The notes below the pieces were generated by a model that saw only the letters and a list, made by a program, of their open reading frames with translations, was not told the DNA's origin and searched no databases. From Desulfobacteraceae bacterium (GTDB lineage: Bacteria; Desulfobacterota; Desulfobulbia; Desulfobulbales; Desulfobulbaceae), in contig JALHJD010000023.1 in NCBI GenBank assembly GCA_022837185.1, positions 1 through 23,796 of the forward strand: a stretch of DNA of 23,796 nucleotides, written 5' to 3'. Shown here piece after piece: positions 16,924 through 20,012 of the stretch (positions are counted from its first letter, which is position 1; each line of letters opens with the position of its first letter). The position numbers and the translations under genes are program-made.

Positions 16924-18129
16924 GTGATGGAAGGCGATGACCGGTCCGGTCCCGGCCCGGCGGGGGGCAAAAAACGACTCGGGGTTCTGATCGGCGGCTC
17001 AGGTCTGATCGGCGGCACCCTGGTGCATTATTTCAAGACCATGACCGCGGACGAGATAGATATCCGTGCGCCCAGCAGCAAAAAACTGTCCATCCGCAAT
17101 GCCGAGGATATCCGGACATACCTGATCAGGGCGCGGCCGGACTTTGTCATCAACTCGGCCGTGGCCTCGCTGGACAGTGATGCCCAGCTGGCCTTCGAAG
17201 TAAACTACAAAGGGTCCGTCAACCTTGCCCGGGCCTGCTGCTCCCTTGGGATTCCCTATATCCATATCAGTTCGGCGGCGACGCTGCCCAACGGCGAAAA
17301 CCTGTCGGAGGAGGAGCATCTCCCCCTGTCGCCGTCCCTGAACCATTATGCCAAGTCAAAACTGATGGCCGAGCGGACCATCCGGCACATGGGCAAGGAG
17401 CAGGGGCTCGATTACACCATAATCCGTCTGGCCATCGTCTACGGCGAACATGACCACAAGATCCAGGGATTCCACCGGCTGTTTTTCTCCATCGCCGACG
17501 AGGCCATGCCGTTCATGGTGACCAGGAAGGGGGTCAAGCATTCCTACACCAATTCGGACAAGATTCCCTACTTTGTCCATCACGTGCTTGATCATCGCGA
17601 GGAATTCGGCCAGGAAACATATCATTTTGTCGACAAGGACCCGGTCGAGCTGGCGGACCTCATCCTGACGATCCGCTCCTATCTTGAACTGAAGCGGCCC
17701 CGGGAAATATATATCCCCTATACGGTTATCCGCTCGGGCAAATTTTTTCTCCAGTGGCTGGCCAGCATACTCAACTGGTTCGGGATCAGTGTCCGCCTGC
17801 CGCCGGAGCTCATCTTTCTTGAGCATTTTTACAAGACCCAGACCCTTTCCTGCGAGAAACTGCGGAATTCAAGCTTTATCGATCCCCTGCCGGACGAATC
17901 CATCTATACCGCCCTGCCCCGGCTGGTGGTCTATTATCTCGAGCGCTGGGGACATCTCAACCTGATCACCACCTTCAATGAAGAGTTCCTTGGCAAATTC
18001 GAATTTGAGGATGATTTTCTCCATCAACCCAGGAAACTGCTGAATACGATTCACGCCGATACGGATTCCATCGCACCGTTTCCTGAATTACAGACCTTGC
18101 GGCGCAACGGGGGGAAAAATGGCTGCTGA
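16924..18129 (+). CDS. Extended SDR / NAD-dependent epimerase-like protein (RmlD-like)
   Basis: A 401-aa protein. Residues 24-31 GGSGLIGG are the Rossmann NAD(P) glycine motif. The block RPDFVINSAVASLDSDAQLAF resembles RmlD/epimerases, ISSAA (115-119) supplies the Ser, and YAKSK (142-146) is the YxxxK catalytic pair, so the active site is intact. Residues ~200-400 are a long, poorly recognised C-terminal part (FFLQWLASILNWFGISVRLPPELIFLEHF, with a hydrophobic stretch near 275-290). It is likely an NAD(P)-linked epimerase, dehydratase or reductase on a sugar nucleotide or other carbonyl substrate, which is unknown. GTG 16924 has GGAGGA at good spacing; ATG 16927 is an alternative. It overlaps the next gene by 11 bases. 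Confidence 0.8.
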   Translation: MMEGDDRSGPGPAGGKKRLGVLIGGSGLIGGTLVHYFKTMTADEIDIRAPSSKKLSIRNAEDIRTYLIRARPDFVINSAVASLDSDAQLAFEVNYKGSVNLARACCSLGIPYIHISSAATLPNGENLSEEEHLPLSPSLNHYAKSKLMAERTIRHMGKEQGLDYTIIRLAIVYGEHDHKIQGFHRLFFSIADEAMPFMVTRKGVKHSYTNSDKIPYFVHHVLDHREEFGQETYHFVDKDPVELADLILTIRSYLELKRPREIYIPYTVIRSGKFFLQWLASILNWFGISVRLPPELIFLEHFYKTQTLSCEKLRNSSFIDPLPDESIYTALPRLVVYYLERWGHLNLITTFNEEFLGKFEFEDDFLHQPRKLLNTIHADTDSIAPFPELQTLRRNGGKNGC

Positions 18130-18841
18130 GACAACGAAGGACAGGCAGAAAATAGTTCTGGCCAACTGGAAGGCGCATCTGTCGCCGGCCCAGGCGGAAA
18201 AGTGGACGGCCGAGTTCGTCCGCCTCTATCTGCCGACGTCGATTCACGTCATTCTGGCGGTCCCGGACATCGTCCTTTCCGCCGTGCACGCCCTGACCCG
18301 GGACCTGAAAAATGTGTCACTTGCCGCCCAGGACGTCTCGCCCTTTCCGCCGGGGGGCTACACCGGGGCAACGCCGGCCGCCTGGCTGGAGGGTCTTGCC
18401 GGTTATGTCCTGATCGGCCACCGGGAGCGGCGCCGCTATTTTCATGAGACGGTTCAGGATGCCGCCAACAAGATCAGCGAGGCCGCGGCGGCGGGCCTTC
18501 GCCCGATCCTGTGCCTGCCCGGGACCGACATTGCCGGGCATCTGGCCCCGGTTGATTCGGCCGACCTGGAGCGGTTGATTCTCGCCTATACACCCGATGA
18601 CGCCGAAGCGCTGGAGGTGGCGAGGAACAGGGAGCCGGTCGCCGCCGCGGTCCGGCAGCTGGCCGAAGCGGCCGGGGGCCGGCCGGTCCTGTACGGGGGA
18701 GGGGTCAACGCTGACAACGTCGCCGACTTGATAACCATTCCCGGCCTGGCGGGGGTGATGGCCGCCGGCGGGAGCCTCAGGCCTTCCGGGTTCATCAGTA
18801 TGCTCAACAATGCGGATCGGGCTCTTGCCGCCGCTTCGTGA
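18119..18841 (+). CDS. Triosephosphate isomerase-like protein lacking the catalytic glutamate
   Basis: A 240-aa TIM-barrel protein of the TpiA family. N16 and K18 in LANWKAH match the substrate-binding Asn/Lys, H101 and E103 in IGHRERRR match the electrophilic His of GHSERR, and YGGGVNADNVADL (192-204) matches the phosphate site YGGSV. Where TpiA has AYEPVWAIGTG, this protein has AYTPDDAEA (156-164). The general-base Glu is therefore Thr158, and the mobile loop 6 with its WAIGTG is gone. It should not isomerise triose phosphates in the usual way, and may bind a phosphate-bearing ligand or do other chemistry. The ATG follows a GGGGGGAAAAA stretch inside the SDR 3' end. It would be annotated tpiA automatically, but that may mislead. 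Confidence 0.83.
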   Translation: MAAETTKDRQKIVLANWKAHLSPAQAEKWTAEFVRLYLPTSIHVILAVPDIVLSAVHALTRDLKNVSLAAQDVSPFPPGGYTGATPAAWLEGLAGYVLIGHRERRRYFHETVQDAANKISEAAAAGLRPILCLPGTDIAGHLAPVDSADLERLILAYTPDDAEALEVARNREPVAAAVRQLAEAAGGRPVLYGGGVNADNVADLITIPGLAGVMAAGGSLRPSGFISMLNNADRALAAAS

Positions 18842-18871: not shown

Positions 18872-19690
18872 ATGATCGACTTCACCCCTGAACAGCTGCA
18901 GCGCTACAGCCGGCAGATCATCCTCAAGGAAATCGGCATAGAAGGCCAGGCAAAGCTGCGGCGGGCCAGGGTGCTGATTGCCGGGGCCGGCGGCCTCGGT
19001 TCGCCGGCGGCCCTTTACCTGGCGGCGGCCGGGGTGGGGGCCATTGACATCGTCGACAGCGACGTGGTGGAGGTCTCCAACCTGCAGCGCCAGATAGCGC
19101 ATGGCACTTCCGACATCGGCAGGGCCAAGGCGCAGTCGGCGGCGGAGGCCATGCTGGCCGTCAATCCGGAAATCAAGGTCCGCCCCCTGCAGACGAGGCT
19201 GCGGGCCGACAACATCATGGAACTGGTCCGCGGCATGGATTTCGTCCTGGACGGCACCGATAATTTTCCGGCCAAATTTCTGCTCAACGATGCCTGCGTT
19301 CTCGCCGGCACTCCCCTGTCCCACGGCGGCGTGCTCGGCTTCGCCGGACAGGCCATGACCATCCTCCCGGGGCGGTCGGCCTGCTACCGGTGCGTTTTCC
19401 GGCGGCCGCCTCCACCCGGGGCGGTCTCCACATGTTCGGAAGCGGGCATCCTGGGGGCGGTGGCCGGACTGCTCGGCACGATCCAGGCTGCCGAAGCGGT
19501 CAAGTGCATCACCGGCGCCGGCGTCCTGCTGACCGATGTTCTGCTCCGCTTTGACGCACTGACCATGGATTTCCGCCGGATTCCCCTGGCCCGCCAGGAG
19601 GATTGTCCTCTCTGCGGCAAAGCGCCGGCCATAACCGCACCAGTCGACATCCCCTGGCCGGCGTGCCCGGGGGCCGAACAATGCCCATGA
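18872..19690 (+). CDS. E1-like adenylyltransferase, HesA/MoeB/ThiF family
   Basis: A 272-aa protein that should adenylate the C-terminus of a ubiquitin-like sulfur carrier such as ThiS/MoaD. Seen in order: RYSRQIILKEIGIEGQAKL (11-29), the ATP loop GAGGLGS (38-44), DSDVVEVSNLQRQ with its conserved Arg (R73), K86, and the Mg site GTDN (128-131). The active-site-type Cys is C188 in STCSEAGILGAVAGLLG. CYRC (171-174) and CPLC (245-248) are zinc pairs. The C-terminal tail has two further Cys (C265, C271), which is unusual. No ThiS/MoaD-like carrier gene is in the window. It lies 30 bases after the TIM-like gene and 76 bases before a TusA-like gene, so a sulfur-transfer function is likely. MoeB versus ThiF cannot be decided. 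Confidence 0.9.
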   Translation: MIDFTPEQLQRYSRQIILKEIGIEGQAKLRRARVLIAGAGGLGSPAALYLAAAGVGAIDIVDSDVVEVSNLQRQIAHGTSDIGRAKAQSAAEAMLAVNPEIKVRPLQTRLRADNIMELVRGMDFVLDGTDNFPAKFLLNDACVLAGTPLSHGGVLGFAGQAMTILPGRSACYRCVFRRPPPPGAVSTCSEAGILGAVAGLLGTIQAAEAVKCITGAGVLLTDVLLRFDALTMDFRRIPLARQEDCPLCGKAPAITAPVDIPWPACPGAEQCP

Positions 19691-19766: not shown

Positions 19767-20012
19767 ATGAACGGCGGCGGCCGGCGGCCCGATGCCGAAA
19801 AAAACCTGGTGGGCACCGGCTGCCCCATGAACCTGGTCTACGCCAAGTTTGAGCTGGCAAAGCTGGAACAGGGCCAGATCCTGCGGCTCATCATCGACGA
19901 CGGGGCCCCGGTCGACAATGTTTCCCGCTCCCTGGCGGGCGAGGGGCACCTGATCATGGACCGGGAGCAGCTCGCGGACGGGACCTGGATGCTCCTCGTT
20001 CGCAAGGGGTAG
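19767..20012 (+). CDS. TusA/SirA-family sulfur-transfer protein with CPMN motif
   Basis: An 81-aa small protein of the TusA/SirA/YedF fold. The likely sulfur-carrying Cys is C19 in TGCPMNLVYAKFELAKLEQG (17-36); canonical TusA has CPxP, and this has CPMN, a variant I associate with a TusA subset found next to E1-like and sulfur-reductase genes (from memory, not checked). The second half, ILRLIIDDGAPVDNVSRSLAGEGH, then the C-terminal strand MLLVRKG, follows the family. It would carry persulfide sulfur in the cytosol. GGGAGGG eight bases ahead supports the start. It is the last gene of the operon and ends in a hairpin shared with the convergent htpX gene, 4 bases away. Confidence 0.85.
   Translation: MNGGGRRPDAEKNLVGTGCPMNLVYAKFELAKLEQGQILRLIIDDGAPVDNVSRSLAGEGHLIMDREQLADGTWMLLVRKG

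What the first reader, a model, noticed from the sequence alone, without database searches (positions are those of the whole stretch)
18119..18841. TIM-family protein with a missing general base and loop 6
Asn, Lys, His and the phosphate loop of triosephosphate isomerase are kept, but the catalytic Glu is Thr158 and the mobile lid (PVWAIGTG) is replaced by PDDAEALEVARN. Keeping the ligand-binding residues while losing the proton-shuttling base suggests a pseudoenzyme or a new activity on a phosphorylated ligand. Automatic pipelines would label it tpiA.
Basis: partly seen in the sequence, partly recalled or inferred. Interest (0 to 1): 0.72.

Follow-up and report, generated by a model that had tools for sequence, protein, structure and literature searches.

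The report
Conserved glutamate-free triosephosphate isomerase relative
Many sulfur bacteria of one order carry, beside their normal triosephosphate isomerase, a second relative of this textbook enzyme that has lost its essential glutamate and rebuilt its lid but keeps the rest of the active site, so it probably does a different, still unknown job.

Summary
Observation confirmed, and it is wider than one gene. The ORF at 18119-18841 is a TIM homologue in which the catalytic Glu is Thr158 and the lid PVWAIGTG is PDDAEALE; Asn16, Lys18, His101, Glu103 and Cys132 are kept. 72 of 146 genomes searched in the same order (probably Desulfobulbales) carry this paralogue. In 91 non-identical paralogues the catalytic column is Gly 49, Thr 36, Cys 4, Ile 1, Asp 1, never Glu; 51 of 51 canonical TIMs have Glu. 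The sampled paralogues form one branch apart from canonical TIMs and show purifying selection. Canonical tpiA accompanies them: in the window's genome its start is cut by a contig end behind pgk; all 7 paralogue-bearing genomes in one to three contigs that I checked have it whole. Base, lid and lid contacts are lost together; the Lys/His/Glu half is kept. An acidic residue two or three positions after the lost Glu occurs in 87 of 91 paralogues and 0 of 51 canonical TIMs: a moved base, or a hinge contact. Best reading: a neofunctionalised, non-TIM paralogue with a live ligand pocket; ligand and reaction unknown.

The parts
18119..18841 (+). Glu-less TIM paralogue, 240 aa
18164..18172 (+). Asn16-Trp17-Lys18, the kept Asn and electrophilic Lys
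   Evidence: Asn 90 of 91 (one gap), Lys 89 of 91 paralogues
18419..18427 (+). His101-Arg102-Glu103, catalytic His and its Glu neighbour; the Ser between them is Arg in most of the window's clade
   Evidence: His 91 of 91, Glu 86 of 91; Arg102 26 of 33 in the YGGG clade
18590..18592 (+). Thr158 in place of the catalytic Glu
   Evidence: Gly 49, Thr 36, Cys 4, Ile 1, Asp 1 of 91; canonical Glu 51 of 51
18596..18601 (+). Asp160-Asp161, acidic pair on the rebuilt lid; Asp161 sits at the lid Trp position
   Evidence: acid at 160 or 161 in 87 of 91 paralogues, 0 of 51 canonical
18590..18625 (+). rebuilt lid, residues 158-169 (TPDDAEALEVAR)
   Evidence: mean pLDDT of residues 161-170 is 60
18614..18616 (+). 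Glu166, conserved in the window's clade
   Evidence: 32 of 33 in the YGGG clade
18692..18703 (+). YGGG (residues 192-195), remnant of the YGGS phosphate loop
   Evidence: Gly193 and Gly194 91 of 91; Ser 51, Gly 33, Ala 6, Pro 1 at 195
18764..18775 (+). AGGS (residues 216-219), altered second phosphate loop
16924..18129 (+). extended SDR (NAD-dependent epimerase/RmlD-like); its stop overlaps the start of the paralogue
   Evidence: SDR family present beside the paralogue in 8 of 91 loci
18872..19690 (+). ThiF/MoeB-like E1 enzyme, probably an independent neighbour
   Evidence: in 7 of 91 loci
19767..20009 (+). TusA-like protein

Best explanation
It is a neofunctionalised TIM paralogue, not a triosephosphate isomerase. 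Shown: one half of the TIM active site (Asn16, Lys18, His101, Glu103, Cys132, and the Gly-Gly of the strand 7 phosphate loop) is kept across an order-wide family, while the other half (catalytic Glu, lid Trp and C-hinge, and the Gly-Glu and Arg after strand 5) is replaced; the gene is under purifying selection and lives beside a canonical tpiA. Inferred: the pocket still binds an anionic, probably phosphorylated carbonyl ligand, polarised by Lys18 and His101; the small residue at 158 (Gly, Thr or Cys) leaves room for a ligand larger than a triose phosphate. Most likely mechanism, inferred: acid-base chemistry on that ligand with an acidic residue of the rebuilt lid (160/161, or Glu166 in the window's clade) in place of the lost Glu. 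I give the moved-base step about 0.35 and the core statement (selected, non-TIM, with a live pocket) about 0.7.
For: 0 of 91 non-identical paralogues has Glu at the catalytic column against 51 of 51 canonical, while Asn (90 of 91), Lys (89), His (91), Glu103 (86) and Cys (91) are kept. Of 54 positions held by at least 98% of canonical TIMs, 26 are kept, 13 intermediate and 15 lost; 8 of the 15 lost are the catalytic Glu, lid and C-hinge (E168, W171, T175, G176, A179 of reference L012) and the stretch after strand 5 (G129, E130, R135). Acid at 160 or 161: 87 of 91 against 0 of 51. dN/dS 0.07-0.24 in 13 pairs. One branch, SH-aLRT 100, apart from canonical TIMs in a tree of 86 rows. Canonical tpiA co-occurs. 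Clearly a TIM fold; a second family member is modelled at pLDDT 90.7.
Against: No ligand, activity or crystal structure is known. Acids at 160/161 could instead be hinge contacts that replace the lid Trp to Glu contact (that contact is recalled). Four of 91 have no acid at 160/161. The second Gly of the GGASL phosphate loop is lost in 86 of 91, which argues against unchanged phosphate binding. 74 of 146 genomes of the order gave no match in the paralogue's score range (some are incomplete), so the function is dispensable. Four genomes showed the paralogue and no canonical TIM (G086, G133, G015, G033); three of them lack pgk and the fourth has only a pgk piece at a contig end, so I read these as assembly gaps.
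Confidence: 0.7

Rival explanations
1. Binding-only pseudoenzyme: it senses or sequesters a triose- or tetrose-phosphate-like metabolite, or scaffolds a partner, without chemistry.
For: The general base is lost in every one of 91 members while ligand-side residues stay; the catalytic column drifts mostly among small residues Gly, Thr and Cys; the commonest genomic neighbours are housekeeping genes (metG, yggT, divIVA-like, yggU), not a pathway.
Against: Lys18, His101 and Glu103, whose established role in TIM is catalytic (recalled), are nearly invariant, and an acid is conserved close to the lost base.
Confidence: 0.3
2. A weak or backup triosephosphate isomerase that uses Asp/Glu 160/161 or Glu166 as the base.
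For: Nearest PDB chain by profile, 7r9b, named triosephosphate isomerase, carries Asp at the Glu position and Glu at the lid Trp position (alignment), so a protein that depositors name TIM shows some change there. Four genomes show the paralogue without a canonical TIM.
Against: Those four also lack pgk or have only a piece of it; canonical TIM is present in the well-assembled genomes and most others; lid, hinge and phosphate-loop invariants are also lost; the window protein scores below the cut-off of all nine NCBIfam models listed for it. The 7r9b Asp is still a carboxylate; 90 of 91 paralogues have none at that position.
Confidence: 0.08
3. Decaying pseudogene or assembly error.
For: One locus (G139) has an internal TAG and G010 has an extra truncated copy.
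Against: 91 non-identical sequences share the pattern, with dN/dS 0.07-0.24 in 13 pairs; a 93% identical orthologue lies in another genome of the same genus.
Confidence: 0.01

Closest known systems
Canonical bacterial triosephosphate isomerase (TpiA, PF00121, TIGR00419)
   Different: Catalytic Glu, lid Trp and lid C-hinge, the Glu after strand 5 and second phosphate-loop Gly lost; about 20 residues shorter (median 230 against 251)
Short TIM of PDB 7r9b (223 aa; organism not shown in the tool output)
   Same: Best PDB match by profile for both A1 and A3 (175 and 169 bits); short; YDPKEAIGTG has an acid at the lid Trp position as in the YGPVEA paralogues
   Different: Keeps a carboxylate (Asp) at the base position and the GTG lid tip
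L-erythrulose-1-phosphate isomerase (PDB 11ef, 11eg, Brucella)
   Different: No special sequence affinity seen; that it keeps the catalytic Glu is recalled, not tested
Second TIM listed for Desulfocapsa sulfexigens (UWK_01623, PMC3739170)
   Same: That paper lists two triosephosphate isomerases in a complete genome of the Desulfobulbaceae, one (UWK_00786) numbered next to pgk (UWK_00787) (passages)
   Different: Described there simply as TIM; that UWK_01623 is this paralogue is my inference, its sequence was not seen

Membership tests
Triosephosphate isomerase superfamily (PF00121) | Pfam profile over its curated cut-off | tested here: met
   125.1 bits against 20.1
Triosephosphate isomerase superfamily (PF00121) | TIM-barrel fold | tested here: met
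Triosephosphate isomerase (enzyme, TIGR00419 equivalog) | NCBIfam equivalog cut-off | tested here: not met
   67.4 bits against 130.6; all nine listed models are below cut-off for the window protein
Triosephosphate isomerase (enzyme) | catalytic Glu (Glu165 in the usual numbering) | tested here: not met
   Thr158; 0 of 91 family members has Glu
Triosephosphate isomerase (enzyme) | Asn, Lys and His of the active site | tested here: met
   Asn16, Lys18, His101
Triosephosphate isomerase (enzyme) | lid loop 6 motif PxWxxGTG | tested here: not met
   PDDAEALE in the window; Trp 0 of 91
Triosephosphate isomerase (enzyme) | phosphate loops YGGS and GGASL | tested here: inconclusive
   Gly-Gly of the first 91 of 91, its Ser 51 of 91; first Gly of the second 78 of 91, second Gly 5 of 91
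Triosephosphate isomerase (enzyme) | isomerase activity on DHAP/GAP | not testable with these tools
   needs purified protein
Tetrulose-phosphate isomerases (EryH and kin) | same fold | tested here: met
Tetrulose-phosphate isomerases (EryH and kin) | erythritol-type operon | tested here: inconclusive
   neighbours in 91 loci read by clustering; those I identified are other genes, and many singletons were not identified
Tetrulose-phosphate isomerases (EryH and kin) | catalytic Glu kept (recalled) | not tested
   sequence of 11ef not aligned residue by residue here; the window protein lacks the Glu

The most novel reading that the evidence does not exclude
A new enzyme class on the TIM active site: the Lys/His electrophile is retained, the general base has been moved to an acidic residue on a rebuilt lid, and the freed space accepts a larger phosphorylated substrate, in an order-wide family of sulfur bacteria that the databases name triosephosphate isomerase.
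Probability: 0.33. Interest if true: 0.8.

Novelty: new variant of a known kind. Interest (0 to 1): 0.6.

Why it matters
TIM is the textbook case of a perfect enzyme in which the general-base Glu is held to be indispensable (recalled). A natural, order-wide clade that dropped the base and lid module and kept the electrophilic module is a ready-made experiment on how the two halves of the TIM site can be separated and reused. It also means that tpiA counts in this group mislead: about half of the sampled genomes (72 of 146) carry a second gene that should not be read as redundancy in glycolysis.

Tried and rejected
Replacement of tpiA by the paralogue: G086, G133, G015 and G033 showed only the paralogue in the PF00121 search; G086, G133 and G015 also lack pgk and G033 has only a pgk piece at a contig start, so a missing stretch of assembly around pgk-tpiA explains it best. 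Pathway from neighbours: SDR and ThiF/TusA flank few loci (8 and 7 of 91), and in two loci (L054, L058) ThiF lies in a set that looks like ThiS, MetY-like, JAMM and TusA (named from my own knowledge, only TusA of the window was checked), so I do not use them for function. The commoner context, ricT-metG-yggT-(divIVA-like)-yggU (yggU in 47 of 91 loci, always same strand), is housekeeping; of 13 paralogue-free genomes with a DUF167 (yggU) match (of 15 searched), 10 have yggU beside yggT, and 5 have it beside the membrane gene F16, without the paralogue in the stretch held, so the gene is dispensable there. F16 has no Pfam match. Wider distribution: 395 genomes of the phylum gave matches above 260 bits in 8 genomes, all of the same order; the other 27 genomes with a match at E 1e-42 or better scored at most 153 bits. 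Other phyla were not searched for it except by the protein searches, of which only the best 120 rows were listed each time. The genome-contig scan kept 80 loci, at 25-34% identity, none titled as this order, so the order name rests on source names. Literature: eight searches listed no description of a Glu-less TIM paralogue in the open library; absence there is not proof. I saw passages of one paper (PMC3739170) and only listings of the rest. Geometry of the acidic residues: no coordinates were available, left open.

Full report

Second TIM in the genome. The window lies in a fragmented assembly (3.32 Mb, 535 contigs, 89% complete). A PF00121 search finds the window gene and one more: the first 52 positions of a TIM next to pgk, cut by the contig end. 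The ORF in front of it is phosphoglycerate kinase and the fragment begins MARRPLIAGNWKMHL, the canonical form. Its catalytic Glu lies beyond the cut and was not seen. Among 57 genomes of close relatives (own genome included), 31 have two or more PF00121 matches; full-length ones fall in two score classes, about 280-330 bits and about 112-182 bits. In 146 genomes of the order a profile of the paralogues (A1) separates cleanly: 72 genomes (my count from the printed rows; 77 rows) have a match above 260 bits, and the canonical TIMs printed score at most 136 bits. By the match counts of that table 69 of the 72 have a further match; not every row was printed, and in a few of these one further match is a second paralogue or a piece. 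The other three are the window's own genome, whose tpiA is a fragment, and G086 and G133, which lack pgk too. Two relatives of lower completeness, G015 and G033, also show only the paralogue; G015 lacks pgk and G033 has only a piece of it. Seven paralogue-bearing genomes in one to three contigs (G010, G072, G079, G096, G100, G135, G161) all carry a full canonical TIM; the three paralogue-free one-contig genomes in the same call (G012, G153, G039) carry only that. So the paralogue is an addition to tpiA, not its replacement.

Which organisms. Homologues named by their sources are Desulfobulbaceae bacterium and bacterium BMS3, and Desulfocapsa sp., Desulfobulbaceae, Thermodesulfobacteriota, Proteobacteria and one Desulfoarculaceae, so the order is probably Desulfobulbales (inference). 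In 395 genomes of the phylum, matches above 260 bits occur in 8 genomes, all of the same order; the remaining 27 genomes with a match score at most 153 bits.

Conservation. I collected 99 paralogue genes by score, 91 non-identical, and 51 full-length canonical TIMs, 29 from the close relatives and 22 from other genomes of the phylum. At the catalytic column canonical TIMs have Glu in 51 of 51; the paralogues have Gly 49, Thr 36, Cys 4, Ile 1, Asp 1 and no Glu. Asn16 is kept in 90 (one gap), Lys18 in 89, His101 in 91, Glu103 in 86 (Asp in 3), Cys132 in 91. Of 54 positions held by at least 98% of canonical TIMs, 26 are kept in at least 90% of paralogues, 13 are intermediate and 15 are lost. Eight of the lost ones are the catalytic Glu, the lid Trp, the lid tip and C-hinge (Thr, Gly, Ala) and the Gly, Glu and Arg after strand 5; that the latter contact the lid is recalled. 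The second Gly of the GGASL loop is lost as well. The change looks modular: the electrophilic half of the site stays, the base-and-lid half goes.

A possible new base. In 87 of 91 paralogues the residue two or three places after the lost Glu is Asp or Glu; in canonical TIMs 0 of 51. The four without read FTPKLE, YGPVSA, YTPVAA and YDPYVP, the last with Asp at the base position itself. In the window's clade (33 rows with YGGG) Glu166 is also near-invariant, 32 of 33. Either could serve as a moved base, or the acid at 161 could simply replace the hinge contact of the lid Trp. I could not measure distances. The nearest PDB sequence by profile, 7r9b, named TIM, reads YDPKEAIGTG there: Asp at the base and Glu at the Trp position, an intermediate-looking pattern; I do not claim descent from it.

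Selection and descent. dN/dS by NG86 is 0.07-0.24 in the 13 pairs printed. A tree of 86 of 222 rows puts 42 paralogues on one side of a branch with SH-aLRT 100 and 44 canonical TIMs of many phyla on the other; the paralogues do not nest among the phylum's canonical TIMs (quick method). The Thr label needs three changes on that tree, though starred branches force only one. The root is not inferred, so the order of changes is not shown.

Neighbourhoods. In 91 loci the commonest neighbours are ricT-metG-yggT-(divIVA-like)-yggU upstream on the same strand: yggT in 49, metG in 48, yggU in 47, ricT in 40, the divIVA-like gene in 27. The names come from my reading of the sequences; PSP1 was checked in the window's own copy and DUF167 by search in other genomes. 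The SDR family of the window occurs beside the paralogue in 8 loci and ThiF in 7. In the genomes without the paralogue, yggT-yggU is often intact (10 of 13). Context therefore gives no substrate.

How it most likely works. Shown: fold, kept and lost residues, selection, co-occurrence with tpiA. Inferred: a phosphorylated carbonyl ligand bound by the strand 7 and 8 loops and polarised by Lys18 and His101; a larger ligand because position 158 is small; acid-base chemistry through the lid acid. A binding-only sensor is the main rival and fits nearly as well. I rate a working non-TIM pocket at 0.7, the moved base at 0.35.

Known or new. The fold and superfamily are known. Eight searches of the open library listed no description of this clade. 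No model of its own turned up in NCBIfam: the window protein is below all nine cut-offs, and the 23 members of A1 match the same general TIM models (where cut-offs of the other members were not shown). The Desulfocapsa sulfexigens genome paper lists two TIM genes as one step of glycolysis (PMC3739170, passages); one is numbered beside pgk and the other may be this paralogue. I file it as a new variant of a known kind.

Noticed in passing
L035, L213, L231, L232: Some genomes of one family (f12) carry a second copy of the paralogue near a glucan-branching-type enzyme; two of these islands (L035, L231) also show BON-domain-like proteins by my reading.
   Followed up: partly
L053:5325-5705 (G010:C1:2886031-2886411): A truncated extra copy of the paralogue, C-terminal half only, about 5 kb from the full one.
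   Followed up: no
L065:4980-5696 (G001): One paralogue with Ile at the catalytic position and the following Pro changed (GCIADEG), an aberrant lid in its clade.
   Followed up: no
L054, L058: Beside the SDR-paralogue pair lies a set that looks like ThiS, MetY-like, ThiF, JAMM and TusA, a possible protein-thiocarboxylate sulfur pathway; the window keeps ThiF and TusA.
   Followed up: no
L049, L056 and others, family F16: An about 480-aa membrane-type protein without Pfam match lies directly upstream of the paralogue in 10 of 91 loci and persists in 5 paralogue-free genomes.
   Followed up: partly
G012: A one-contig genome without paralogue also lacks a DUF167 (yggU) match.
   Followed up: no
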